From contig OZ020305.1 in the NCBI GenBank assembly GCA_963971305.1, positions 45,655,750 through 45,719,749 on the forward strand: 64,000 bases of DNA, given 5' to 3'. How positions within the stretch are numbered: the first letter of the stretch is position 1; every line of letters begins with the position of its first letter. Shown here piece after piece: positions 13,752 to 62,847 of the stretch. The notes under the pieces are model-generated. The model was not told the origin of the DNA, made no database searches, and saw nothing but the letters and a program-made list of their open reading frames with translations. Both the position numbers and the translations under genes were made by a program. This stretch comes from Arcuatula senhousia (lineage: Eukaryota; Mollusca; Bivalvia; Mytilida; Mytilidae).

Positions 13752-16004
13752 ATGAGTGACACGGAGTCGGAGGAAGGAAGCATTTATGACAGCGGCAGTG
13801 ATGGGGAAATGGAGACGGAGATAGATAGTAGTGACGAGGACGATGACCCAGTGGTACCAGTTGAAAGATTACCCTGGTTTAGAATTCAACCACCTGAACA
13901 TTGAAGACGATGAGGAGGAACCTTTCAGAGAGAACTTCGGACCCAGAAACATGCCAGTTCGAACAAGCTCACCGGCAACATATTTCTTTCTATTTATGAC
14001 CTTAGATTTTATTAGGAGGCTTGTAACTGAAACTAACAGGTGCGTTAGAATAGGTTTTTAGATATTTAAACAGCATACGATATTTATCGTTTCTGAAAAA
14101 TGGCTGCTTTTCATCGCTGTTCTTATTGATATTTTGTCATGTATATTTGCCGACCAAAGTTTTTACATGCACAAGTTAAATTAATAGAATATATAAAGCT
14201 TGTCGTTATATGTAATGTTTTATAGGACGACTCCTATTTTGTTAACTAAAAACGTATTATACAACTTAAAAACAACCAAATTAAAGCCAATGTAGCACAT
14301 TTTTATACAAATCGCCGAAGCCGCAATGCTTTTATTATCCGCGCATTAGTAGACGATTGTCTCCTATAAAAATAGTGCATTGTAACAAGTTTTATTCAAA
14401 TGTAAAAAAACCCACACGCATTTTAAAAGACAGGTACACATTATATAAGTTATATAGGTTGTAACATCAGGTTTATAAAATATGAATCATGCCTTAGTGC
14501 GTACGATTTAACTTTTAGTTGATGGACGTTATTTTTTTTCAAAAATCTAGGCGAAAAAATATATCAAATAGGCCATCAAACCCCGAAGTCGAAAAAGCAA
14601 ACAAACGAACAAAAAAAATCAAACAATTTTATTGTGTAAATATATTCGATTTTTTTTTATTTAGATATGCTGCTAATTACATTAGAGGAAGAGACCAAAT
14701 AAGTCGATTTAGTAGACTGCATGATTGGTACAAAGTAGGAGTCGTAACTGTTAATGAAATGAAAGCGTTTTTAGGTGTTATATTAAACATGGGGTTAATG
14801 AAAAAAGCTACAATTGCAGAATATTGGAATTAACACGAAATACCCGAGCCAGGACACCAGATGGTTTAGAAATGTGTTTAGTAGAAACAGATTTCAAATT
14901 TTATTGAAATTTTTTCATTTGGTAAATAATGAAACTGTTCCTGATAGAGAAAGTCCGGACTATCAACCAACTTGCAGATTCCAATGCCTAATCGACCAGT
15001 TCAACACTTCATCATTACACCATCTCATACCAGCTCAGAACCTCAGTATTGAAGAGAGTTTAATTACGACACGCGGTAGATCCGTCATGAAACAATACAT
15101 ACCCACTAAAAGTGCAAAGTTTGGAGTTAAGGCATGGATGCTTGTAGAAGCCATCTCAGGGTATTTATTACAAATGTCAATTTATCCAGGAAAAAGATAC
15201 GACCGAACACCGAGAGGAACCCCTCAAGGAGAATATGTTGTGATGTCTTTATTAAGGGCTGCAGGACTGATCAGGAAATGGTTCCACGTTGTTTGCGACA
15301 GTTTTTTTACGTCCATAAACTTAGCACGAAAACTAATCGATTCAAGAACATACTTCACCGGAACTATTCGCCAAAACCGACCAATGCCCCAGAGTATTAA
15401 AAATCCGCAAATAGGTGTCAACGAATCGATTTTTGTTCGTCAGGGAAAGCTTTTGCTGTGTAGTTATCGCGAAAGAGCTCATCGGAAACCAGTCCGTATT
15501 ATTTCAACAAAGCAAAGAGCCGTACTAGATGGAAACAACAAACCGGATGTGTTGAACTTTTACAACAAACATATGGGTGGTGTCGATTTATGTGACATGA
15601 TGTTAAGTTTTTATGCAACCAACCGCAAAAGTATTAAAGTATGGAAAAAAGTTTGTTTCAACATCATTAATAGAATGGTTGTCAATGCATATATTTTGTA
15701 CTTGAAACAGTCATCAGACAGACCTCTTAAATCTCGCCTTCAGTTTACGCAATGCATTGTTGAAGAATTGGTAAGAGATCATTTGGTGGACAAAGACGCG
15801 GACATTGAGAATAGAATTAGAAATCGTGGAACTGTTAGAATAAAGATAAGGAAGCTGCCCGCCGCTAAGCAGTTGGAATGTAATGTTTGTTCCGACAGAT
15901 ACGGAATAGGAGGAAGACACAGGGCTAGAACCGCATGTACTACTTGTGGGAAAGGGCTACATAAAGACTGTATTGTGAATCATGTTTGTTTGAATGAAGC
16001 ATAA
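13752..16004 (+). pseudogene. piggyBac transposase (DDE_Tnp_1_7 type) with a spliced intron and two frameshifts
   Basis: Start chosen at ATG 13752, giving an acidic N-terminus (MSDTESEEGS), usual for the family; an in-frame ATG at 13707 is the alternative. Exon 1 runs to 14039, is shifted near 13896, then carries the RTSSPATYFF...ETNR segment. A 625-bp intron (14040-14664; GTGCGT...TTTAG) joins ETNR to YAANYIRGRD in frame. A second one-base shift lies near 14830, after which 390 codons are open to the stop at 16002. Catalytic segments: LSIEESL (expected Asp is Glu), VVCDSFFTS (Asp present), MGGVDLCDMM (Asp present). The C-terminus has the family's cysteine-rich zinc finger (CNVC...CTTC...HKDC...HVC). 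The frameshifts plus the D-to-E change argue against activity, though sequencing error could explain either shift. Confidence 0.88.
14040..14664 (+). other. Intron inside the piggyBac transposase gene
   Basis: Donor AACAG|GTGCGT and acceptor TTTTTATTTAG|ATATGC with a long T-tract. Removal reconstitutes an AGA codon in the conserved TNRYA motif, which is strong evidence that it is a real intron rather than a random break. Confidence 0.8.
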
Positions 16005-23379: not shown

Positions 23380-25045
23380 GGGTTGGCACGTTAAGAGAAA
23401 ACTCGTCATCCTGTGAAGGTATGTAGCAAGCTTGCAGAAAGGTCTTGTAAAGTTGTGACTCGTAAGAAGAAGAGGAAGTAGAAAACTAAAGTTAAACAGC
23501 CTTGGTCTGACATAACAATATATGATCAAAAGAAAAATTTAAATTATTTGAGCGGTCAAATCAGGAAACCCCCTTTGAATCGTGAGTTGAAACAGAAATA
23601 CTTTTTACAATTAAAATCTTTTAAAAAGGCTGTTAAGCACAAAAAATATTTATTTAAACAATCCATATTTGATAAATTTTCTGACGCAATTAATAATAAA
23701 CCCTCAGAGTTCTGGAAAATTATCAACTCTATGCCTGACTGAAAAAAAAGTCAATGAAAATGAAGAAGTTTCAGAATTGATTTCTGATTTTGAAAATAAA
23801 GTTGCCCATGTTAAAAAACAATGAGAGTACTAGTGTAAAAGTATTAATCAAGATTTTCAGAATAAAGTTCGCTCAGAAATTCCAAAAATTGAGTAAAAAT
23901 AACCCTCGAAGAAAAAACAGATAAACCTATCAAAATTAGTGAAATTAAAAATGTACTCAAAACTCTTGAAAAAGGGTAAATCAAGTGGTCCAGATGGTAT
24001 AAAAAATGAAATATTTAGATATAGTTGTAACACAACAGTTGCTGCCCTAACCAAACTGTTCAATCTTATTTTAAAATCTGGACACTACCCACACCAGTGG
24101 AACAAGTCTCACCTGATATTGTTACACAAAATGGGCAACAAACTAGATCCCTCTAATTACAAGGGAATTTTTCTTAGTAATTGCATGGCAAAAATATTTA
24201 GTAGTGTTCTTAACAATAGACCTAAATTACTTATGAAGGGAAAATATGCAAACTCCCAATTTGGTTTCAGAGAAAATCACAGAACAAGTGATAGTTTATT
24301 TGTTCTCAAAACTCTAGTTAATAAATATATTCACAAAAATAAAAAGAAACTTTACTTCTGTTTTGTGGAATTCCAAAAATCTTTTGACTCTGTGTGGAGG
24401 GAAGGGTTATTATTTAAATAATTGGCTAAGATGGGGACGGGCAAATATATGTTTAATATCATTAAAAATATGCTGACTAAAACAGAAATTGCATTGAGAG
24501 TGGATCAGAAACACTCAGAATATTTTGATATAAAAAGAGGAGTGAAGCAGGGAGATTCATTAAGACCCTCTCTGTTCAATATGTTTATAAATGACCGAAA
24601 CCTAAACTTTATTTCACAAAATTGTGATCCTCCAAAACTTATAGATTCTTTCATTGGTTCTCAATCATTTGCAGATGACCTTTTGATCATGTCTGAAAGT
24701 AGGGAAGGTCTACAAAATAGTGTTAATAACTTAGCCAGTTTTTGTGATAACTGGCAACTTTCATTAAATGTTCAAAAAACTAAAACCATGGTTGTCCAAC
24801 AGTATTCTAATAATAAAATTGATTCATTCATAGTGTATAAGGGAGCTTATAAGAATATGAATTTTAAGGCACTCTTCTGAAAAACAATGGGAATCTGAAA
24901 CACAGTCTGGAAGAACTTTCTAAAAAAGCTAGAAAAGTTCTTTTTTTTCTATTAGAGGAAAGACTGCTTCTTTAGGCAATCTTCCTATTTCAGTTATTAA
25001 TAATCTATTTGACAAACTAGTTATTCCAGTAACGACGTTTTTTTT
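23380..25045 (+). pseudogene. LINE reverse transcriptase, 5' and central part, broken
   Basis: Decayed non-LTR retrotransposon ORF2. The linker before the RT is at about 23480-23740; RT begins near 23940 with GKSSGPDGI, then FGFRENHRTSDSLF, motif A as FVEFQKSFDSVW (the expected catalytic Asp is Glu), a stop at 24419, GVKQGDSLRPSLFNMFI, and the FADD catalytic box (about 24669-24680). A frame change near 24870 leads to SLEELSKKARKVLF. No endonuclease domain is visible, so the copy is 5'-truncated or rearranged. Motifs fit a CR1/Jockey-like or related clade, not decided further. It continues, after unrelated sequence, at 26785 and 29238. Confidence 0.85.
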
Positions 25046-47493: not shown

Positions 47494-48250
47494 ATTGCAA
47501 TGGTCCCGACTTGGTACAGGCACTTCCAAAGAAGTGGTGGGTTAAACCAGGTTTTATGGCGCCAAACCTCCCTCTTCCATTGCGATCTTAGGATCCGGTA
47601 ATGACCATAGAACACAACATAGTTGTGAGACACAATAGGGATATTGAGGTGATCATCTCAGTACAGCAGACCAGTCAAACACTAATTAAAACAATTAACT
47701 ATCATATCTTTTAACTCAATTTTGAACTTTTCTACTAGTGGCTGATAACGAAGAAAGAATTTTTTTAGTGATCGTATGAGACGTATTTTCTTATAGCCCT
47801 GCTTCAAAAGTCGGTCACGAAGAAACCGGTGTCTGATCAAAAAATCTGTGAAATGTGTGCAAGCTCTGGCATATCGAATAAGTTGAGAAATATAAACACT
47901 TAGGTATATTGCTCTGTAGATTAGGAAAATTAATAATTTGAAAATTAAAATCGTCTCGTTTATCGTAAATTTTTGTACTGAGAATGAGATGACAACCCGG
48001 GTCAAATTCGAGGTGCAAATCCAAGAAAGACGTGAAGCAATTAGATTCGGTGGTCTCTTTAATCTCCAATTCCGGAGGATATATTGAAGGAATCCAACTA
48101 CCAAATGAAGTGTTATTGACAGAAAGGACATCATCAATATATCTGAATGTAAGATTAAATGACCTTGCCTCTTTCATCTTCTTGTTCCTTACGAGTCCCT
48201 GAAGAAATTCAGTGAAGAAAAAGGAGTGATGGGTAGGGACGGGAAATTTT
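47494..48250 (-). mobile_element. Penelope-like element B (PLE-B), 3' half, reference copy
   Basis: Minus-strand RT C-terminal half with few disruptions: SFFFTEFLQGLVRNKKMKEA, FNLTFRYIDDVLSVNNTSFG (catalytic YIDD intact), YPPELEIKETTESNCFTSFL, YDKRDDFNFQIINFPNLQ, then after a frame change YISQLIRYARACTHFTDFLI and a stop after KDMIVNCFN. The 3' flank continues through GATCATCTCAGTACAGCAGA to GGATCCGGTAATGACCAT. Upstream (above 48250) it meets SINE-B sequence and the RT N-terminal half is missing. This copy keeps the residues conserved in PLE-A, so it is used as the reference for the hypermutated copy at 61.2 kb. Confidence 0.82.
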
Positions 48251-49626: not shown

Positions 49627-49756
49627 TCTATGTTCTATTCAAATCAAATTGTGAATGGTTAAAGTGAATACCAAATGGCATTATGAATGTACACTGAGAT
49701 AATTAAAATTTAGTCTTAATTTTCTCAGATCTACAAAATAAAATGTACACTAACAG

Positions 49757-50009
49757 TTAGGGACGGACCATTTAACTTGAAGGGGGGCCTTGGTTTTTTG
49801 TTTTGGTCAGAATATTTATTTTTCGAAGGCGTCGCGACAGAATATTTGTTTTCATTAACATTTTTTTATGTGGCAGAAATCGTTCTTCAGAATATTTTTT
49901 TTCTTACCCTCTGCTGCCAAAATATTTTTTTCATCAAAAATAATTTTCAACAGAATATTTTTTTAGGAAAAAAGATCGCCCCTTTCAAGTTAAATGGTCG
50001 GTCCCTTAA
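49757..50009. mobile_element. Foldback element (GGGACSGACCATTTAACTTG ends)
   Basis: TTAGGGACGGACCATTTAAC at the left, inverted TTAAGGGACCGACCATTTAA at the right. The interior has repeated AGAATATTT(T)TT phrases. The same right half appears inverted at about 61124-61187 and 62306-62350, split there by PLE-B. Confidence 0.75.
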
Positions 50010-50334
50010 GGTCACAAGGCAGCAAAACAACGTAAATGCTGGTTAATTCACTCTTTTTCTATTGATATATGATAATTGTAAAAAGTACACCTTTTCATAT
50101 ATGCAACATCTAAAATTTCACTCGGTCTTCATATTGATACCCGAAAAGAAGACCCTTTTGTGACGCACATATGTACCTACCACTACCCCCCCCCCTGGAC
50201 AGAATATATTTTTACATTAAATGAAATAACTAGTTTTAATTAGTCCCAGATTTTTATCACAAATTCAGAAACAAAATATTTTTTCAAAGAAAATTTCAAG
50301 GTCTCCTCCTTAAATAATTCGTTCCTTTTGGTAA

Positions 50335-53300
50335 ATTCACTCATATTCTTAGACAGAGCTACCCTATACATAGTTGTAAAGTTCAAGTGTGGTAAATTTC
50401 ACCATATTTCACCACTCTATTGCTACAAATACTCTAACTATACTCAACATCCAGTCATTCAGAATGGAATCCAGTCACTCATATTCTTAGACAGAGCTAC
50501 CCTATACATAGTTGTAAAGTTCAAATGTGATAAATTTCACCATATTTCACCACTCTATTGCTACAAATACTCTAACTATACTCAACATCCAGTCATTCAG
50601 AATGGAATCCAGTCACTCATATTCTTAGACAGAGCTACCCTATACATAGTTGTAAAGTTCAAATGTGATAAATTTCACCATATTTCACCACTCTATTGCT
50701 TCAAATACTCAAACTATATTCAACATCCAGTCTTTCATATGATAATTCAAAGCTACCCTTAACATATTTATATGATACAAATGTACCAAATTTCACCATA
50801 TTTCACCACTCCATTGCTACAAATATTCTAGCAATACTCAACATCCAGTCATTCAGAATGGAATCCAGTCACTCATATTCTTAGACAGAGCTACCCTTAA
50901 CATAGTTGTAAAGTTCAAATGTGATAAATTAATATATTTCACCACTCTACTGCTACAAATACTCTAACTATATTCATCATCCAGTCATTCGGAATGGAAT
51001 CCAGTCACTGATATTCTTAAACAGAGCTACCCTATACATATTTATATGATACAAATGTACCAAATTGCACCATATCTCACTACTCTATTGCTACAAATAC
51101 TCTAACTATATTCAACATCCAGTCATTCAGAATGGAATCCAGTCACTCATATTCTTAGACAGAGCTACCCTATACATAGATGTAAAGTTCAAATGTGATA
51201 AATTTCACCATATTTCACTGCTCTATAGCTACAAATGCTCTAACTAAATTCAACATCCAGTCATTCAGAATGGAACCCAGTCATTCATATGATAATTCAA
51301 AGTTACCCTTAACATATTTATATGGTACAAATGTACCAAATTTCACCATATTCACCACTCCATTGCTACAAAGATTCTAGCAATACTCAACATCCAGTCA
51401 TTCAGAATGGAATCCAGTCACTCATATTCTTAGAGCTACCCTAAACCTAGTTGTAAAGTTCAAATGAGATAAATTTCACTATATTTCACCACTCTATTGC
51501 TACAACTGTTCTAGCAATACTCAACATCCAGTCAATCAGAATGGAATCCAGTCACTCATATTCTTAGACAGAGCTACCATATACATATTTATATGATACA
51601 AATGTACCAAATTGCACCATATTTCACTACTCTATTGCTACAAATACTCTCACTATATTCAACATCAGGTCATTCAGAATGGAATCCAGTCATTCATATC
51701 ATAATTCAAAGTTACCCTAAACATATTTATATGATACAAATGTACCAAATGTCACCATATTTCACCACTCTGTTGCTAAAAATACTCTAACTATATTAAA
51801 CATCCAGTCATTCAGAATGGAATCCAGTCACTCATATTCTTAGACAGAGCTACCCTAAACATAGTTGTAAAGTTCAAATGTGATAAATTAATATATTTCA
51901 CCACTCTACTGCTACAAATACTCTAACTAAATTCAACATCCAGTCATTCAGAATGGAACCCAGTCATTCATATGATAATTCAAAGCTACCCTTAACATAT
52001 TTATATGGTACAAATGTACCAAATTTCACCATATTTCACCACTCCATTGCTACAAATATTCTAGCAATACTCAACATCCAGTCATTCAGAATGGAATCCA
52101 GTCACTCATATTCTTAGAGCTACCCTAAACATAGTTGTAAAGTTCAAATGTGATAAATTTCACTATATTTCACCACTCTATTGCTACAACTGTTCTAGCA
52201 ATACTCAACATCCAGTCATTCAGAATGGAATCCAGTCACTCATATTCTTAGACAGAGCTACTCCAAACATAGTTGTAAAGTTCAAATGTGATAAATTTCA
52301 CTATATTTCACCACTCCATTGCTACAACTGTTCTAGCAATACTCAACATCCAGTCATTCAGAATGGAATCCAGTCACTCATATTCTTAGACAGAGCTACC
52401 CTAAACATAGTTGTAAAGTTCAAATGTGATAAATTTCACTATATTTCACCACTCCATTGCTACAACTGTTCTAGCAATACTCAATATCCAGTCATTCAGA
52501 ATGGAATCCAGTCACTCATATTCTTAGACAGAGCTACCCTAAACATAGTTGTAAAGTTCAAATGTGATAAATTTCACCATATTTCACCGCTCTATAGCTA
52601 CAAATGCTCTAACTAAATTCAACATCCAGTCATTCAGAATGGAACCCAGTCATTCATATGATAATTCAAAGCTACCCTTAACATATTTATATGGTACAAA
52701 TGTACCAAATTTCACCATATTTCACCACTCCATTGCTACAAATATTCTAGCAATACTCAACATCCAGTCATTCAGAATGGAATCCAGTCACTCATATTCT
52801 TAGAGCTACCCTAAACATAGTTGTAAAGTTCAAATGTGATAAATTTCACTATATTTCACCACTCTATTGCTACAACTGTTCTAGCAATACTCAACATCCA
52901 GTCAATCAGAATGGAATCCAGTCACATATATTCTTAGACAGAGCTACCCTAAACAAAGTTGTAAAGTTCAAATGTGATAAATTTCAACATATTTCACCAC
53001 TCTACTGCTACAAATACTCTAACTATATTCAACATCCAGTCATTCAGAATGGAATCCAGTCACTCATATTCTTAGACAGAGCTACCCTATACATAGTTGT
53101 AAAGTTCAAATGTGATAAATTTCACCATATTTCACCGCTCTATAGCTACAAATGCTCTAACTAAATTCAACATCCAGTCATTCAGAATGGAACCCAGTCA
53201 TTCATATGATAATTCAAAGCTACCCTTAACATATTTATATGGTACAAATATACCAAATTTCACCATATTTCACCACTCCATTGCTACAAATATTCTAGCA

Positions 53301-54544
53301 ATACTCAACATCCAGTCATTCAGAATGGAATCCAGTCACTCATATTCTTAGACAGAGCTACTCTAAACATAGTTGTAAAGTTCAAATGTGATAAATTTCA
53401 CTATATTTCACCACTCCATTGCTACAACTGTTCTAGCAATACTCAACATCCAGTCATTCAGAATGGAATCCAGTCACTCATATTCTTAGACAGAGCTACC
53501 CTAAACATAGTTGTAAAGTTCAAATGTGATAAATTTCAACATATTTCACCACTCTACTGCTACAAATACTCTAACTATATTCAACATCCAGTCATTCAGA
53601 ATGGAATCCAGTCACTCATATTCTTAGACAGAGCTACCCTATACATATTTATATGATACAAATGTACCAAATTGCACCACATTTCACTACTCTATTGCTA
53701 CAAATACTCTAACTATATTCAACATCAGGTCATTCAGAATGGAATCCAGTCATTCATATAATAATTCAAAGTTACCCTAAACATATTTATATGATACAAA
53801 TGTACCAAATGTCACCATATTTCACCACTCTGTTGCTAAAAATACTCTAACTATACTCAACATCCAGTCATTCAGAACGGAATCCAGTCATTCATATAAT
53901 AATTCAAAGCTACCCTTAACACATTCATATGATACAAATGTACCAATTTTTTCCATATTTCACTACTCTATTGCTACAAATATCTAACTGTACTCAACAT
54001 CCAATCATTCAGAATGGAATCCAGTCATTAAAACAATAATTCAAACTGACCCTATACATTATTATATGATACAAATGTACCAAATTTCACCACTCTATTG
54101 CTACAAATACTCTAACTATATTCAACATCAGGTCATTCAGAATGGTATCCAGTTTTTCATATAATAATTCAAATTTAACCTAAACATATTTATATAGTAC
54201 AAATGTACCAAATTTTTCTATATTTCACCACTTTATTGCTACAAATACTCTAACAATACTCAACATCCAGTCATTCAGAATGGAATCCAGTCATTCATAT
54301 TCTTAGACAGAGCTACCCTATTCATTGTTGTAAAGTTCAAATGTGATCAATTTCACCATATTTCACCGCTCTATTGCTACAAATACTCTAACTATACTCA
54401 ACATCCAGTCATTCAGAATGGAATCCAGTCTTTCATATAATAATTCAAGTTTAACCTATTTATTTTCATATTTATATGCTACAAATGTACCAATTTTTTC
54501 CATATTTCACCGCTCTATTGGCATTTGCTACAGATACTCTAACT
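50335..54544 (+). repeat. Tandem array of ~138-bp units, forward arm
   Basis: About 30 units, period near 137-138 bp (GTTGTAAAGTTC at 50373, 50511, 50649). Each has CACCATATTTCACCACTCTA, TTGCTACAAATACTCTAACT and CAACATCCAGTCATTCAGAA. Two half-types alternate irregularly: one with TTCTTAGACAGAGCTACCCT and GTTGTAAAGTTCAAATGTGA, one with ATAATTCAAAGCTACCCTTA and GATACAAATGTACCAAATTT. Frames inside translate the repeat and show no selection for coding. Confidence 0.9.
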
Positions 54545-54545
54545 A

Positions 54546-54932
54546 CAGTACACTCAGAGAGGATTGATTCTCATACTCTTATTTCGGAGGGAATTTTATT
54601 AATGATTCCAGGAAACTCCAAGAAAAGCCATAAAACCTAGGAGGGTTCTAAGAGTACTCCCTCCAAAGGGTCATAAATTACTCCGAGCTTGGAGTTTTTT
54701 ATTGCCTTGAAAACCTTTTGAAGTAGCATCTATTTCCTGTCTTTCTTGTCAGGTGAAAATGATTATAATACACAAGGTAATAAACAACTCCAAAATACTC
54801 CGAAAAAGGTAATAAATTTCTCCCAGGTTGGAGAAATTCCTTGGAGAATTTTAAGAGTTTTCTCTGTGAAACTCTGTGAATCACTGGACACTGAAATCAG
54901 AGTATGAGAATTAATCCTCTCTGAGTGTACTG
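54546..54932. mobile_element. Tc1/mariner-type MITE at the palindrome centre
   Basis: 387 bp with TA on both sides (54544-54545, 54933-54934) and terminal inverted repeats of about 39 bp starting CAGTACACTCAGAGAGGATT, with two differences. Removing it and one TA restores the array phrase CTAACTATATTCAAC. TA duplication plus CAGT start fits mobilisation by a Tc1/mariner transposase. Confidence 0.9.
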
Positions 54933-54934
54933 TA

Positions 54935-57900
54935 TATTCAACAATTGAATTATCATATGAAAGACTGGATTCTGAATGACTGGATGTTGAGTATAGTTAG
55001 AGTTTTTGTAGCAATAGAGTGGTGAAATATGGTGACATTTATCACATTTGAACTAAACAAATATGCATAGGGTAGCTCTCTTAAATAATATGAGTGACTG
55101 GATTCCATTCTGAATGACTTGATGTTGAGTATCGTTAGAGTATTTGTAGCAATAGAGTGGTGAAATATTGTGAAATTTGGTACATTTGTATCATATAAAT
55201 ATGTATAGGGTAGCTCTGTCTAAGAATATGAGTGACTGGATTCCATTCTGATTGACTGGATGTTGAGTATAGTTAGAACTTTTGTAGCAATAGAGTGGTG
55301 AAATATGGTGAAATTTGGTACATTTGTATCATATGAATATGTTAATGGTAGCTTTGAATTATCATATGAATGACTGGATTCCATTCTGAATGACTGGATG
55401 TTGAATATAGTTAGAGTATTTGTAGCAATAGAGCGGTGCAATATGGAAAAAAATTGGTACATTTTTATCATATAAATATGTTTAAGTTAAATTTGAATTA
55501 TTATATGAAAGACTGGGTTCCATTCTGAATGACTGGATGTTGAATTTAGTTAGAGCATTTGTAGCAATGGAGCGGTGAAATATGGTGAAATTTATCACAT
55601 TTGAACTTTACAACTATGCATAGGGTAGCTCTGTCTAAGAATATGAATGACTGGATTCCATTCTGAATGACTGGATGTTGAGTATTGTTAGAGTATTTGT
55701 AGCAATAAAGTGGTGAAATATAGAAAAATTTGGTACATTTGTACTATATAAATATGTTTAGGTTAAATTTGAATTATTATATGAAAAACTGGATACCATT
55801 CTGAATGACCTGATGTTGAATATAGTTAGAGTATTTGTAGCAATAGAGTGGTGAAATTTGGTACATTTGTATCATATAATAATGTATAGGGTCAGTTTGA
55901 ATTATTGTTTTAATGACTGGATTCCATTCTGAATGATTGGATGTTGAGTACAGTTAGATATTTGTAGCAATAGAGTAGTGAAATATGGAAAAAATTGGTA
56001 CATTTGTATCATATGAATGTGTTAAGGGTAGCTTTGAATTATTATATGAATGACTGGATTCCGTTCTGAATGACTGGATGTTGAGTATAGTTAGAGTATT
56101 TTTAGCAACAGAGTGGTGAAATATGGTGACATTTGGTACATTTGTATCATATAAATATGTTTAGGGTAACTTTGAATTATTATATGAATGACTGGATTCC
56201 ATTCTGAATGACCTGATGTTGAATATAGTTAGAGTATTTGTAGCAATAGAGTAGTGAAATGTGGTGCAATTTGGTACATTTGTATCATATAAATATGTAT
56301 AGGGTAGCTCTGTCTAAGAATATGAGTGACTGGATTCCATTCTGAATGACTGGATGTTGAATATAGTTAGAGTATTTGTAGCAGTAGAGTGGTGAAATAT
56401 GTTGAAATTTATCACATTTGAACTTTACAACTATGTTTAGGGTAGCTCTGTCTAAGAATATGAGTGACTGGATTCCATTCTGAATGACTGGATGTTGAGT
56501 ATTGCTAGAACAGTTGTAGCAATGGAGTGGTGAAATATAGTGAAATTTATCACATTTGAACTTTACAACTATGTTTAGAGTAGCTCTGTCTAAGAATATG
56601 AGTGACTGGATTCCATTCTGAATGACTGGATGTTGAGTATTGCTAGAATATTTGTAGCAATGGAGTGGTGAAATATGGTGAAATTTGGTATATTTGTACC
56701 ATATAAATATGTTAAGGGTAGCTTTGAATTATCATATGAATGACTGGGTTCCATTCTGAATGACTGGATGTTGAATTTAGTTAGAGCATTTGTAGCTATA
56801 GAGCGGTGAAATATGGTGAAATTTATCACATTTGAACTTTACAACTATGTATAGGGTAGCTCTGTCTAAGAATATGAGTGACTGGATTCCATTCTGAATG
56901 ACTGGATGTTGAATATAGTTAGAGTATTTGTAGCAGTAGAGTGGTGAAATATGTTGAAATTTATCACATTTGAACTTTACAACTTTGTTTAGGGTAGCTC
57001 TGTCTAAGAATATATGTGACTGGATTCCATTCTGATTGACTGGATGTTGAGTATTGCTAGAACAGTTGTAGCAATAGAGTGGTGAAATATAGTGAAATTT
57101 ATCACATTTGAACTTTACAACTATGTTTAGGGTAGCTCTAAGAATATGAGTGACTGGATTCCATTCTGAATGACTGGATGTTGAGTATTGCTAGAATATT
57201 TGTAGCAATGGAGTGGTGAAATATGGTGAAATTTGGTACATTTGTACCATATAAATATGTTAAGGGTAGCTTTGAATTATCATATGAATGACTGGGTTCC
57301 ATTCTGAATGACTGGATGTTGAATTTAGTTAGAGCATTTGTAGCTATAGAGCGGTGAAATATGGTGAAATTTATCACATTTGAACTTTACAACTATGTTT
57401 AGGGTAGCTCTGTCTAAGAATATGAGTGACTGGATTCCATTCTGAATGACTGGATATTGAGTATTGCTAGAACAGTTGTAGCAATGGAGTGGTGAAATAT
57501 AGTGAAATTTATCACATTTGAACTTTACAACTATGTTTAGGGTAGCTCTGTCTAAGAATATGAGTGACTGGATTCCATTCTGAATGACTGGATGTTGAGT
57601 ATTGCTAGAACAGTTGTAGCAATGGAGTGGTGAAATATAGTGAAATTTATCACATTTGAACTTTACAACTATGTTTGGAGTAGCTCTGTCTAAGAATATG
57701 AGTGACTGGATTCCATTCTGAATGACTGGATGTTGAGTATTGCTAGAACAGTTGTAGCAATAGAGTGGTGAAATATAGTGAAATTTATCACATTTGAACT
57801 TTACAACTATGTTTAGGGTAGCTCTAAGAATATGAGTGACTGGATTCCATTCTGAATGACTGGATGTTGAGTATTGCTAGAATATTTGTAGCAATGGAGT

Positions 57901-59235
57901 GGTGAAATATGGTGAAATTTGGTACATTTGTACCATATAAATATGTTAAGGGTAGCTTTGAATTATCATATGAATGACTGGGTTCCATTCTGAATGACTG
58001 GATGTTGAATTTAGTTAGAGTATTTGTAGCAGTAGAGTGGTGAAATATATTAATTTATCACATTTGAACTTTACAACTATGTTTAGGGTAGCTCTGTCTA
58101 AGAATATGAGTGACTGGATTCCATTCTGAATGACTGGATGTTGAGTATTGTTAGAGTATTTGTAGCAATAGAGGGATGGAATATGGTGAAATTTATCACA
58201 TTTGTATCATATTAATATGTTTAGGGTAGCTTTGAATTATCATATGAATGACTGGATTCTATTCTGAATGACTGGATGTTGAGTATTGTTAGAGTATTTG
58301 TAGCAATAGAGTGGTGAAATATTGAAAAATTTGGTACATTTGTATTATATAAATATGTTTAGGTTAAATTTGAATTATTATATGAAAAACTGGATACCAT
58401 TCTGAATGACCTGATGTTGAATATAGTTAGAGTATTTGTAGCAATAGAGTGGTGAAATATGGTGAAATTTGGTACATTTGTATCATATAATAATGTATAG
58501 GGTCAGTTTGAATTATTGTATGAATGACTGGATTCCATTCTGAATGACTGGATGTTGAGTACAGTTAGATATTTGTAGCAATAGAGTAGTGAAATATGGA
58601 AAAAATTGGTACATTTGTATCATGTGAATGTGTTTAGGGTAGCTTTGAATTATTATATGAATGACTGGATTCCGTTCTGAATGACTGGATGTTGAGTATA
58701 GTTAGAGTATTTGTAGCAATAGATTAGTGAAATATGGTGAAATTTATATGAAAGATTGGATTTAGGGTAGCTTTGAATTATTATATGAATGACTGGATTC
58801 CGTTCTGAATGACTGGATGTTGAGTATAGTTAGAGTATTTGTAGCAATAGATTAGTGAAATATGGTGAAATTTATATGAAAGATTGGATTTAGGGTAGCT
58901 TTGAATTATTATATGAATGACTGGATTCCGTTCTGAATGACTGGATGTTGAGTATAGTTAGAGTATTTTTAGCAACAGAGTGGTGAAATATGGTGACATT
59001 TGGTACATTTGTATCATATAAATATGTTTAGGGTAACTTTGAATGACTGGATTCCGTTCTGAATGACTGGATGTTGAGTATAGTTAGAGTATTTGTAGCA
59101 ATAGATTAGTGAAATATGGTGAAATTTATATGAAAGATTGGATTCCATTCTGAATGACTGGATGTTGAGTATTTGTAGCAATTGAGTGCATGGTGAAATA
59201 TGGTGAAATTTGGTACTTTTGTATCATATAAATAC
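54935..59235 (-). repeat. Tandem array of ~138-bp units, reverse arm
   Basis: Same unit family read on the minus strand. The turn is at about 54945, inside CAATTG (54942-54947). 54950-55570 has no counterpart in the left arm and acts as a loop. Beyond about 58145 the arm changes: 58245-58700 is a direct near-copy of 55645-56100, and 58700-59130 holds shortened units with GAAATTTATATGAAAGATTG repeated about three times. Confidence 0.9.
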
Positions 59236-59589
59236 GTTTGTGTTTTTATCGTTTAATACATTTTTAACTGTTCTTAAGACACAGTAATAATTCTAAATAA
59301 AGAATCTCCAAGTGTACTTACAGACTGCCTTAGGATCCTTACATTTTTACAAATGTTCAAAGTTAAGTCAAACAATCTTTTGCAAGAGAAAGAATTGTTG
59401 TTGTTTGTTTGGTTTGTTTTGTTTTTTTGTTTTTTTTTTGCGAGGGTGTTTAATTTAAAGCCTGGTCGAAGCCTGAATGACTCATCTAAAATATGCAATC
59501 AAGGAATAAAAGCAATGTTCAAAATAATTTACTCCTGAAATATGGTGTGTTGAGTTACAGAGTAGAAAAGTTATAACAATTTTGGTCTT
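59236..59589. other. No gene seen
   Basis: Transition from the satellite array into PLE-A sequence. A T-rich tract lies at 59416-59440. Opposed frames here have no motif. Confidence 0.4.
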
Positions 59590-60095
59590 ATTTGTCTCAG
59601 TCAACTTTCCATTCTTGTATAAAACATTCCAACCGCTCCAGCTTATGGAGTTTACGTATCTCAATTGATTCGTTACTCCAGAGCGTGCAGGACTTACATC
59701 GATTTCCTTAGCAGAATTGCTCACACAGGGTTATGTTGCTCCTCGGTTGCTGTCTTCACTCAAGAATTTTTACGGAAGACATCATGCACTTATAGATAAA
59801 TACGGGATTTCGATCTCTCAGATGGTTTGTCATAGAGTTTTGTTTTGTCTTCCTTTACCGGATTTGACATGCTGAATTGACCGTTGCCAACGCAACGGAT
59901 GTGCTATAGCAAGCAGGAACTGCCTACTCTTCCGGATCACCTGAGTTCACTCTTGCTTCGACTTGAGTTCGCGTTGTTGATTAATATTCAGTTATTTTGT
60001 GTTTCCATGTTTTACATGTCTGTTATTGTACCGTTCTTGTTGGTGTTTACTGGTTTTGTCTCTGCCCTTTCGGACTTTTGACATTCAGATACCCC
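59590..60095 (+). pseudogene. PLE-A remnant, C-terminal RT part and 3' end
   Basis: Plus-strand frames read YGVYVSQLIRYSRACRTYID, then degraded LSSLKKFYGR-like text, then the 3' tail GTTGGTGTTTACTGGTTTTG and CCTTTCGGACTTTTGACATT. It ends at GATACCCCATCGGTACCTCT, the same end as the 27.25-kb copy. Present only in the right palindrome arm. Confidence 0.78.
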
Positions 60096-60339
60096 ATCGG
60101 TACCTCTGTTTCTTTCATGATTATTTCTCTGCATATATAATCCCAATACATGTGCCATGTTTGTTTATATTTGATTTAATGTATTACGAAAGAAAGAAAA
60201 AAATATAACACGGCTAGTCGTAAACAGGAAGTTGAAGTTTTGAGGTTTGAAAGTTGCTCAGGACTGTACAGTTTGTAATTATTTTTGATTTAAACATATT
60301 TATGTATCCTGGATTGGGAAACAAGCTTAATGCTTATGT

Positions 60340-60545
60340 GAATCCCTCCCCAGTTAGCGGTTTGCGAGCGTGGCCTTTGTAGCGGCCCCATTGAGCTTTC
60401 TCTTATCAAACTCTACAAAGGGGTATTTAACATGCATGGGGTATTGCTCTCCACATACACGGGACGGCCTTTTTTGTCCCTTCCGAAGGACTAGCATCGT
60501 TCCTTGAGACCTTCCTCGCAATGGAATTATGAACCATCCTAACAA
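60340..60545 (-). repeat. Unassigned GC-richer dispersed repeat
   Basis: GGGGTATTTAACATGCATGG and CACGGGACGGCCTTTTTTGT with TTCCGAAGGACTAGC have the look of the 3' end of a further SINE-like family. No second copy in this window; assignment is from general resemblance only. Confidence 0.35.
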
Positions 60546-60599
60546 ATTTCAAGTCATTCTTATATACAATTTCTGAGAAAAGCTTGACGAAAATTCATA

Positions 60600-60904
60600 T
60601 GGATGTACGTACAGACGGTCGGACATGAGTAAAATTTAATGACCACCGATATGTTTTTGTCGTCGACACACATAAAACAGACGATCGAATACCTTTTAGT
60701 TGGGTAATCTATATACCAGAACCTTAAATACTAAACTCTGAGTCTACGTTGCGGAACGACTGGGCGTCGCCATTTGAGGGAAACTGTAACCTTATAATCA
60801 TAATTAATAATTGTGACTATTAAAGTCCTAAGAATGACAAAAAAAAAACAAATGCGGAGACGAAAGAAAGCATCCGTAATAATTAGCGGTATTTTGAAAC
60901 CTTA
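60600..60904. other. No gene seen
   Basis: Mixed sequence with one short GGTCGGACATGAG phrase typical of bivalve repeats. No credible exon. Confidence 0.4.
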
Positions 60905-61187
60905 AACTAGTTATTTTATTTTAAAATTTAAAAATATATTCTGTCCAGGGGGGGGTAGTGGTACGTACATATGTGCGTCCCAAAAGGGTATACTTTTCGG
61001 GTATCAATATGAAAATCGAGTGAAATTTTAGATGTTGCATATATGAAAGGTGTACTTTTTACAAATATCGTATATCAATAGAAAAAGAGTGAACCAGCAA
61101 TTACGTTTTGCCTCCTTGTGACCTTAAGGGACCGACCATTTAACTTGAAAAGGGGGGGGGCGTTGTTTTTTCCTAAAAAAATATTCT
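60905..61187 (-). repeat. Right palindrome flank, inner part
   Basis: Inverted match to 49970-50240, including AACTAGTTATTTTATTTTAA, GGGGGGGTAGTGGTACGTAC, GGGTATCAATATGAAAATCG and TTAAGGGACCGACCATTTAA. It is cut at CTAAAAAAATATTCTC by PLE-B; the other side of the cut resumes at about 62306 with GAAAATTATTTTTGATGAAA. Confidence 0.82.
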
Positions 61188-62308
61188 CAAACCTACCTCT
61201 TCCATTGCGATCTTAGGATCCGGTAATGACCATAAAACACAACACAGCTGTGAGACACAATAAGGATATTGAGGTGATCATCTCAATACAGCAGACCAGC
61301 CAAACACCAACTAAAACAACCAACCAAAACATCCCCCAACTCAATTCCGAACCCCTCCACCAGTGGCTGATAACGAAGAAAGAATTCTCCCAGGGACCGC
61401 ATGAAACGCCTCTTCATACAGCCCTGCTCCAAAAGTTGGTCACGAAGAAATCGGTGCCTGATCAAAATATCCGAGAAATTCGTGCAAGCCCCGGCACATC
61501 GAGCAACTTGTGAAACACAAACACCGCACGCAGGGGAAGCAGGCACACCGCTCTGCAGATTAGGAAAACCAACAATTTGAAAGTTAAAACCGTCTCTTCT
61601 ATCGTAAATTGTACCGAAATGACCACCTGCATGGTTTGACACTCGAGGCGCAAATCCAAGGAAAACGTGAAGCAATCCGACCCCGTGGTCTCTCTTATCT
61701 CAAACCCTGGAGGATACATTGAAGGAACCCATCAACCAAATGAAGTGCCACCGACAGAAAGGACATCATCAATATATCTGAATGTAAGACCAAACGACCC
61801 CGCCCCTGTCACCCCCTGCTCCCTACGAGTCCCCGAAGAAATTCAGTCCCGCAACAGTATAAAAACAAATCGGCGAGGAGAGGAGCACAGTAAGTGCCCA
61901 TTGGAATGCCGATTTGTTGTTGAAAATGTCTCCTCCGAAGGTGACAAATATGTTGTCAATGGGGAAATCAAGCACACTGCAAACTTGTTCCAGTGTGTAA
62001 CAAATTTTATCTTTGAAAGATGTTTTGGGAAAGAATGTAGAGTTATAACCCAAAACAACAAAATTCCTAGAATATGAAAAGGCTTTTTCGATAAGTTTTT
62101 TCAGGCGACATTTTAGGTTTTCCTGTGGCGGGGTAGTGTATAAAGTTGAAAAATCGAACGTTTTCAAAGAATGAACCGCAGAAAATGATCTAGATTTAAA
62201 ATGATCTAACAAATCTTTCGAGTTCTTCAAAACCCACTATGATTATAAATAGTGTCGCAGTATGCTTGTTGACCTTCTTTGACAGCAGACAAGATTTTAT
62301 CAAGACAA
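61188..62308 (-). mobile_element. Penelope-like element B (PLE-B), hypermutated copy
   Basis: A minus-strand RT fragment inserted in the right palindrome flank. The upstream part (62230 down to about 61850) looks ordinary: MKNSKDLLDHFKSRSF, KTFDFSTLYTTPPQENLK, then the GIPMGT-type segment. From about 61850 to 61240 the alignment to 47590-48200 shows roughly 70 T-to-C plus-strand differences (A-to-G in sense) and only a handful of any other transition. Protein effects: YDKRDDFNFQI to YDRRDGFNFQI, NNTSFG to GGTSFG, SQLIRYARAC to SQVARCAGAC, LLKQGY to LLEQGC, and the stop TAG to TGG with read-through. The YIDD box is kept. The 3' flank (GGATCCGGTAATGACCAT) is shared with the reference copy. Confidence 0.85.
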
Positions 62309-62730
62309 GAAAATTATTTTTGATGAAAAAAAATATTTTGGCAGCAGAGGGTATGTATTTTGTAGATCTGAGAAAATTAAGACTAAATTTTAATTATCGC
62401 AGTGTACATTCATAATGCCATTTGGTATTCACTTTAAACATTCATACTTTGATTTTAATAGAACATAGGAAGTAGCCCCCCCCCCCCCCGTTCTATAGAA
62501 TATGTTTGATTTTAATAGATCTATAGACGCGGGGGCCACTGCCTATAATTTAGGGTCTATAGAATATGTTTGATTTTAATAGATCTATAGACCCGGGGGG
62601 CTACTGCCTATAATTTAGGGTATACCTGTGCCGTTGGTCTGTTCAGAACCGGACCCTGTTAGTATAAAAATATTTGCTAAAAACATACCCTGTTATGCCA
62701 GACTTCATTTTATATCATACCCTGTTAGGA
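62306..62730 (-). repeat. Right palindrome flank, outer part
   Basis: Inverted match to 49488-49755: GGCAGCAGAGGGTA, TTTGTAGATCTGAGAAAATT, ATTCATAATGCCATTTGGTA, ATACCTGTGCCGTTGGTCTG, GAACCGGACCCTGTTAGTAT. It contains a local tandem duplication of about 66 bp (TCTATAGAATATGTTTGATT at 62493 and 62559) absent from the left side. Confidence 0.8.
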
Positions 62731-62847
62731 AGCAACCATTTGATTTTTATGGGGTTTTAGGGGGGGGGCTATGGTGAAATTTGAAATAAAGGGCAGGATG
62801 GCAAAAATCCAGAAATAAAAAGACAGGACAGTGCTTTGAGAAAACTA

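What the first reader, a model, noticed from the sequence alone, without database searches (positions are those of the whole stretch)
61240..61850. One-directional A-to-G cluster in a Penelope-like element: candidate adenosine-deaminase hyperediting
Aligning this PLE-B copy by eye to the reference at 47590-48200 gives about 70 T-to-C differences on the plus strand (A-to-G on the element's sense strand), against roughly 3 C-to-T, 3 A-to-G and 5 G-to-A. Direction is set by conserved protein text: YDKRDDFNF and SQLIRYARAC are kept in the reference (and in PLE-A), while this copy has YDRRDGFNF and SQVARCAGAC, with K-to-E/R/G, N-to-G/S/D, Y-to-C, I-to-V and stop TAG-to-TGG. The cluster stops sharply near 61850; upstream codons of the same element look normal. 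Cytosine deamination (APOBEC, methyl-CpG decay) gives the wrong change. A-to-I editing of double-stranded RNA by ADAR, then reverse transcription, fits. A fixed genomic trace of it in a mollusc PLE would be notable.
Basis: partly seen in the sequence, partly recalled or inferred. Interest (0 to 1): 0.93.

Follow-up and report, generated by a model that had tools for sequence, protein, structure and literature searches.

The report
Genomic fossil of RNA hyperediting
A jumping-gene copy in this genome carries a sharply bounded block in which about half of all A's have become G's, best explained by the cell's RNA-editing enzyme ADAR rewriting the element's RNA before it was copied back into DNA, and a second copy shows the same kind of scar.

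Summary
Against 36 normal copies from the same genome, the retroelement copy at 61188-62309 (sense strand minus) has 80 of 164 A sites changed to G in 61300-61852, with 4 G>A, 5 T>C, 3 C>T and 19 transversions. Outside the block 6 of 160 are changed (27-copy majority). No normal copy has more than 7 A>G there. Protein relatives give the same polarity. The changes ignore codon position and favour a 5' T or A, as ADAR does. ADAR genes are present. The block lies inside one 5'-truncated insertion whose empty site is in the window; three carrier copies share 77 edits, so one event was later duplicated. Of two A>G patterns answered, one found nothing and one found a second, differently edited copy on C8 (30 A>G, 2 G>A, 1 T>C, 0 C>T); the two matched T>C controls found none. 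Best reading: A-to-I hyperediting of double-stranded element RNA, then reverse transcription. The RNA partner was not found and inosine was not observed, so the enzyme is inferred. The block's 3' edge is nearer 61300 than 61240.

The parts
61188..62309 (-). 5'-truncated retroelement (PLE-B) copy, sense strand minus, about 1.12 kb, one insertion
   Evidence: flanks match the other arm of the carrier with the insert missing; normal copies align along its length
61300..61852 (-). hyperedited block: 80 of 164 sense A sites changed to G
   Evidence: protein-polarised 43 of 103 obligate A sites in 61250-61860
61853..62309 (-). unedited 5' part of the same insertion (A>G 3 of 139)
   Evidence: protein-polarised A>G 1 of 26 obligate A sites
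61188..61299 (-). nearly unedited 3' end of the same insertion (A>G 2 of 26; the two changes are at 61245 and 61248)
   Evidence: differs from the majority of 27 normal copies in 61240-61860 by 2 A>G, 1 G>A, 1 transversion
61001..61187 (+). carrier repeat on the 3' side of the insertion
   Evidence: 88% to 49952-50140 minus
62310..62468 (+). carrier repeat on the 5' side of the insertion
   Evidence: 62309-62353 matches 49948-49905 and 62356-62468 matches 49740-49628, both minus
49628..50140 (-). other arm of the carrier with the empty insertion site near 49948-49952
59120..62844 (+). part of the carrier unit shared with two other genomic copies that hold the same edited insertion
   Evidence: 98.5% to C3:43981882-43985603 and 98.3% to C10:51870519-51874238; C6:13669312-13670354 holds 61801-62844 only

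Best explanation
A transcript of this retroelement formed a long RNA duplex over about 553 nucleotides of its 3' coding part, presumably with an antisense transcript of the same family (inferred). ADAR deaminated about half of the adenosines in the duplexed sense strand to inosine (inferred from the spectrum, density, block shape and neighbour preference). The element's reverse transcriptase read inosine as G, and the 5'-truncated cDNA was inserted into a larger repeat (insertion shown; timing inferred from the block edges lying inside the insert). That repeat now exists at four places at least, three with the whole scar and one with part of it (shown). A second copy of the family carries a different scar (shown), so it happened at least twice.
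For: A>G 80 against G>A 4, T>C 5, C>T 3 in the block, against 36 normal copies. Protein-polarised, without the window reference: A>G 43 of 103, G>A 5 of 58, T>C 7 of 81, C>T 1 of 34; upstream A>G 1 of 26; the reference copy 6 of 103. Two sharp edges inside one insertion. Fraction edited by 5' neighbour: T 27/41, A 28/49, C 12/33, G 13/41; W against S p=6e-4, G against rest p=0.012. Combined with the second copy: T 33/47, A 35/60, C 15/39, G 18/53; p=1.2e-4 and 0.006. Blind to codon position: 26/55, 27/60, 24/45, p=0.69. Second copy L057: A>G 30, G>A 2, T>C 1, C>T 0, 3 transversions over 483 nt, main block 21 of 36. Two matched T>C pattern controls gave 0. A_deamin domain on four contigs, one a close match to ADAR2 structures, 1zy7, E 1.3e-87. 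Published yardsticks, passages read: mollusc ADAR1 edits TA, CA and AA over GA (PMC6651903); nearly 50% of A's changed in an inverted-repeat region of avian retroviruses (PMC12925331).
Against: No antisense or inverted partner with the right ends was found: the loci L002-L031 and four larger stretches show no oppositely oriented copy of 100 nt or more, only short ones such as 99 nt in L009 and 64 nt in L020; the rest of the genome was not searched for this. The 3' neighbour preference is flat (A 27/50, G 16/30, T 24/53, C 13/31), so invertebrate 3' A enrichment is not confirmed. A 5' C is edited as little as a 5' G (12/33, 13/41), unlike the mollusc report where CA is a strong target. G stands 5' of 13 of 80 edited sites, against 7.85% (human) and 5.8% (Xenopus) of sites in RNA reads (PMC2873906 passages). 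A>G variants in normal copies fall on edited columns more than expected (21 of 80 against 6 of 84, p=0.0013), so some of the 80 may be old polymorphism. One of the two A>G patterns that were answered found nothing.
Confidence: 0.88

Rival explanations
1. Reverse-transcription hypermutation: the element's reverse transcriptase put C opposite A over a stretch, for example when dTTP was short, giving sense A>G without any deaminase.
For: Gives the right strand and the right change; a single cDNA event would also be blocky.
Against: Needs a misincorporation rate of about 49% with normal copying before and after; does not predict preference for 5' T or A (p=6e-4; 1.2e-4 combined).
Confidence: 0.05
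2. In-place DNA damage or error-prone synthesis (polymerase eta likes WA sites) on one strand after insertion.
For: 5' W preference fits.
Against: Density of 80 in 164 with few other changes; both edges lie inside the insertion; a second copy with different edits shows the same one-way change. Polymerase eta properties are recalled, not looked up.
Confidence: 0.03
3. Inherited divergent subfamily: the G-rich state is ancestral or was transmitted by transposition.
For: Three full copies and one partial copy share it; 25 of 80 columns show G in at least one normal copy.
Against: The sharing copies also share the carrier flanks, so they are duplicates; protein relatives support A; 55 columns have no G in 36 normal copies. 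A protein search with the edited frame found 1 relative, which has the normal residues; the normal frame found 1350, but the two queries cover only partly the same stretch, so this comparison is loose.
Confidence: 0.02
4. ADAR acting on the DNA strand of the RNA:DNA hybrid during reverse transcription.
For: Activity on model substrates is reviewed in PMC12925331 (passage).
Against: Editing first-strand cDNA would give sense T>C; T>C in the block is 5. Only second-strand editing would fit.
Confidence: 0.02

Closest known systems
A-to-G hyperedited avian retroviruses (Rous-associated virus, avian leukosis virus)
   Same: one-way A>G at nearly 50% of A's in a part of the genome (PMC12925331 passages)
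   Different: retroviruses, described in the review as sequence changes in U3 and in an inverted repeat; here a retroelement copy sitting and duplicated in a host chromosome
ADAR1 hyperediting of malacoherpesvirus RNA in oyster and abalone
   Same: A>G clusters, 5' T and A preferred over G (PMC6651903 passages)
   Different: RNA-level and low frequency per site; 5' C is a good target there, not here
A-to-I hyperediting of repeat-derived dsRNA across Metazoa
   Same: repeat elements as targets, 5' G depleted (PMC5625713 passages)
   Different: seen in RNA reads; invertebrate 3' A enrichment is not significant here
APOBEC-type DNA editing of retroelements
   Same: one-way strand-specific cluster in retroelement DNA (PMC2873906 passages)
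   Different: gives G>A; in that survey A>G/T>C clusters were not over-represented in high-quality human and Xenopus DNA traces

Membership tests
ADAR hyperediting trace | one-directional A>G on the RNA-sense strand | tested here: met
   80 A>G against 4 G>A, 5 T>C, 3 C>T
ADAR hyperediting trace | 5' neighbour T or A favoured, G disfavoured | tested here: met
   W against S p=6e-4, G against rest p=0.012; combined p=1.2e-4 and 0.006; C is as low as G
ADAR hyperediting trace | 3' A enriched as in invertebrates | tested here: inconclusive
   A 27/50, G 16/30, T 24/53, C 13/31
ADAR hyperediting trace | confined to a block, as a duplex would be | tested here: met
   80 of 164 inside, 6 of 160 outside
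ADAR hyperediting trace | a duplex partner (antisense or inverted copy) | tested here: inconclusive
   none of 100 nt or more in the held loci; no helix over 18 bp in the sense RNA alone; not searched genome-wide
ADAR hyperediting trace | ADAR enzyme in the host | tested here: met
   PF02137 over cut-off on C9, C11, C4, C6; the C9 piece matches ADAR2 structures best; the other three were not identified further than motifs on C11
ADAR hyperediting trace | inosine in the RNA | not testable with these tools
   no RNA reads
APOBEC/AID cytosine deamination | G>A or C>T excess | tested here: not met
   G>A 4, C>T 3 in the block
Penelope-like element | reverse transcriptase domain | tested here: inconclusive
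   relatives P0001, P0002, P0047 match RVT_1 at 19.4, 17.6, 17.4 bits, under the 29.6 cut-off; three window frames match no family; YIDD motif visible
Penelope-like element | GIY-YIG endonuclease domain | not tested
   that end of the element was not looked for
target-primed retroelement insertion | 5' truncation and filled target against an empty site | tested here: met
   insert begins inside the coding frame; empty arm near 49948-49952; no target duplication seen, about 3-4 bp of the target missing

The most novel reading that the evidence does not exclude
In this animal, ADAR hyperediting of retroelement RNA in the germline is recurrent and leaves heritable, datable A>G scars, so that a genome-wide census of such blocks can map past sense-antisense duplexes of transposons and measure ADAR as an anti-transposon mutator.
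Probability: 0.6. Interest if true: 0.82.

Novelty: new variant of a known kind. Interest (0 to 1): 0.74.

Why it matters
Retroelement scars of cytosine deaminases are well studied, whereas the one DNA-trace survey I saw passages of found no A>G excess in DNA. This is a clean A>G scar with controls and a second example in the same family. It implies that edited RNA was not merely silenced but was still used as a template and inserted in the germline. It makes an open question testable in any animal genome: how often does ADAR meet transposon RNA in germ cells, and does it stop transposition?

Tried and rejected
Intramolecular folding of the normal sense fragment: no long helix (longest 18 bp), and edited A's are not significantly more paired than kept ones (0.56 against 0.49, p=0.28). 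Purifying selection as the cause of the kept A's: codon positions do not differ, though the YIDD motif happens to be spared. Light A>G bias in 27 normal copies: singletons show none clear (A>G 23 of 346, T>C 17 of 381, G>A 30 of 186, C>T 30 of 215). Inverted partner copies: none of 100 nt or more in held loci. The window reference's truncation point (61847-equivalent) lies 5-11 nt from the block edge, but the edits at 61849 and 61852 lie beyond it, so it is only a lead. Viral contigs gave no relative; genome contigs gave one, in a bacterial bin. Literature searches searches listed no title or abstract start reporting a fixed ADAR scar in a transposon; only open-licence PMC papers are held, and I saw listings and, for seven papers, passages; no whole paper. 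The Hajjar and Linial 1995 paper is not held. Two more A>G patterns (P2, P4) and the P2 control did not complete. How many hyperedited copies such patterns would catch was not measured.

Full report
The finding holds. The copy at 61188-62309 (sense strand minus) was aligned to its neighbour at 47563-48213: 77 sense A>G against 7 G>A, 7 C>T and 3 T>C, with 27 transversions and 530 identities. Among 248 repeat pairs of at least 80 bp in the window, this is by far the most strand-asymmetric (about 1e-18; next 5e-4).

Direction was tested without the neighbour. A protein search with a normal frame found 1350 relatives; the 120 listed were used. At positions where at least 60% of the relatives share a residue that forces a base, the block 61250-61860 has A>G 43 of 103, G>A 5 of 58, T>C 7 of 81 and C>T 1 of 34. 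The upstream part of the same copy has A>G 1 of 26, and the neighbour copy 6 of 103. A search with the edited frame found one relative, which carries the normal residues; the two queries cover only partly the same stretch, so their hit numbers are not a fair contrast.

The genome (1.036 Gb; window at C3:45655750-45719749) was then searched. Of 4317 candidates 40 were scored, giving 41 matches: three full edited copies (the window's included), one partial edited copy on C6, 36 normal copies, and one 36-base piece. The panel is therefore the best-scoring part of a much larger family: one 26-mer from it occurs, with up to one mismatch, at 2,427 places. The 36 normal copies were the panel, some of them incomplete; the first fits used 27 of them. 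The neighbour copy, the C6 partial copy, the 36-base piece and the bacterial-bin relative L001 were left out of the majority.

Against the 36-copy majority, block 61300-61852 has A>G 80, G>A 4, C>T 3, T>C 5 and 19 transversions. Upstream A>G is 3 of 139 and at the 3' end 2 of 26. The largest A>G count in any normal copy is 7. A two-breakpoint fit, made with 27 normal copies, puts the block at A sites 61852 to 61300, with 80 of 164 inside and 6 of 160 outside. The gain in log likelihood is 48; over 27 normal copies and four transition types it never exceeds 8.6. Of the 80 columns, 25 also show G in some normal copy, so 55 are strictly private.

The edits are blind to coding: 26/55, 27/60 and 24/45 at the three codon positions (p=0.69), in a frame that is open for 335 codons in the 27-copy majority. 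They favour 5' T (27/41) and A (28/49) over C (12/33) and G (13/41); W against S p=6e-4, G against rest p=0.012. The 3' neighbour shows nothing. T and A over G agrees with what is reported for mollusc ADAR1 (PMC6651903, passages) and for ADARs of many animals (PMC5625713, passages). Two points do not: a 5' C is a good target in the mollusc report and a poor one here, and the invertebrate 3' A enrichment is not seen.

The copy is one insertion. Its flanks match the other arm of the carrier repeat at 49628-50140, where the insert is missing; about 3-4 bp of the target are lost and no target duplication is seen. Both block edges lie inside the insert. The two other full copies share carrier sequence over window 59120-62844 at 98.3-98.5%, and 77 of the 80 edits are common to all three. 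The G's are therefore one event that was later duplicated, not a transposing lineage. Leaving A/G pairs aside, the copy is about 5-7% from 27 normal copies, while these differ from each other by about 1.6%, so the insertion is old or came from an older subfamily.

A second example was sought with degenerate patterns that allow G at every A and ask for G at three places, one mismatch allowed. The first gave 0, its T>C control 0. The second gave one place, on C8, and its T>C control 0. That copy (L057, 483 nt) has A>G 30, G>A 2, T>C 1, C>T 0 and 3 transversions, with a main block of 21 of 36 and 9 of 102 outside it, partly in a second small cluster; 25 of its 30 columns have no G in 36 normal copies. 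Its edits differ from those of the window copy (overlap table 8, 2, 13, 12), so I take it as an independent event; its flanks were not compared with the carrier. Two further A>G patterns did not complete.

ADAR genes are present: A_deamin domains on C9, C11, C4 and C6. The C9 piece is closest to ADAR2 structures (1zy7, E 1.3e-87).

Mechanism. Shown: direction, density, limits, neighbour preference, single insertion, duplication, a second differently edited copy, and presence of ADAR genes. Inferred: that the change was deamination of RNA in a duplex before reverse transcription. Misreading by the reverse transcriptase, DNA-level mutation and an inherited subfamily each fit worse on at least one test. 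Not shown: the duplex partner, and inosine. The neighbour copy's truncation lies 5-11 nt from the block edge, but edits at 61849 and 61852 lie outside its homology, so it is only a lead.

Novelty. Comparable one-way A>G changes are described for avian retroviruses (PMC12925331, passages). A survey of sequencing traces saw G>A clusters in retroelements and no over-representation of A>G/T>C clusters in high-quality human and Xenopus DNA traces (PMC2873906, passages). My ten library searches listed no fixed ADAR scar in a transposon; the library holds only open-licence papers. I file it as a new variant of a known kind.

Noticed in passing
50337-59239: Two satellite arrays in inverted orientation (about 50337-54545 and 54945-59239); longest arms 3034 nt, 97% complementary, 998 nt apart. 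The edited insertion sits in one arm of the repeat that flanks them.
   Followed up: partly
62845-64005: About 1.16 kb present in the window carrier copy but missing from the carrier copies on C3:43.98 Mb, C10 and C6, so probably a later insertion.
   Followed up: no
61300-61852: A>G variants in 27 normal copies fall on edited columns more often than on kept ones (21 of 80 against 6 of 84, p=0.0013): old polymorphism, mutable sites or recurrent light editing.
   Followed up: partly
48213: The normal neighbour copy is 5' truncated at a point equivalent to 61847, within 5-11 nt of the 5' edge of the edited block.
   Followed up: partly
L057:1447-1929: Second hyperedited copy of the family, with a smaller cluster of A>G at its 5' end besides the main block.
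   Followed up: partly
L001:1-594: A Candidatus Thioglobus bin contig encodes a relative of the element, probably host DNA in a bacterial bin.
   Followed up: no
14519-16004: Open frames of 104 and 396 aa that look like a piggyBac-type transposase (recalled resemblance).
   Followed up: no
23939-24880: Two adjoining frames that look like a LINE-type reverse transcriptase (recalled resemblance).
   Followed up: no
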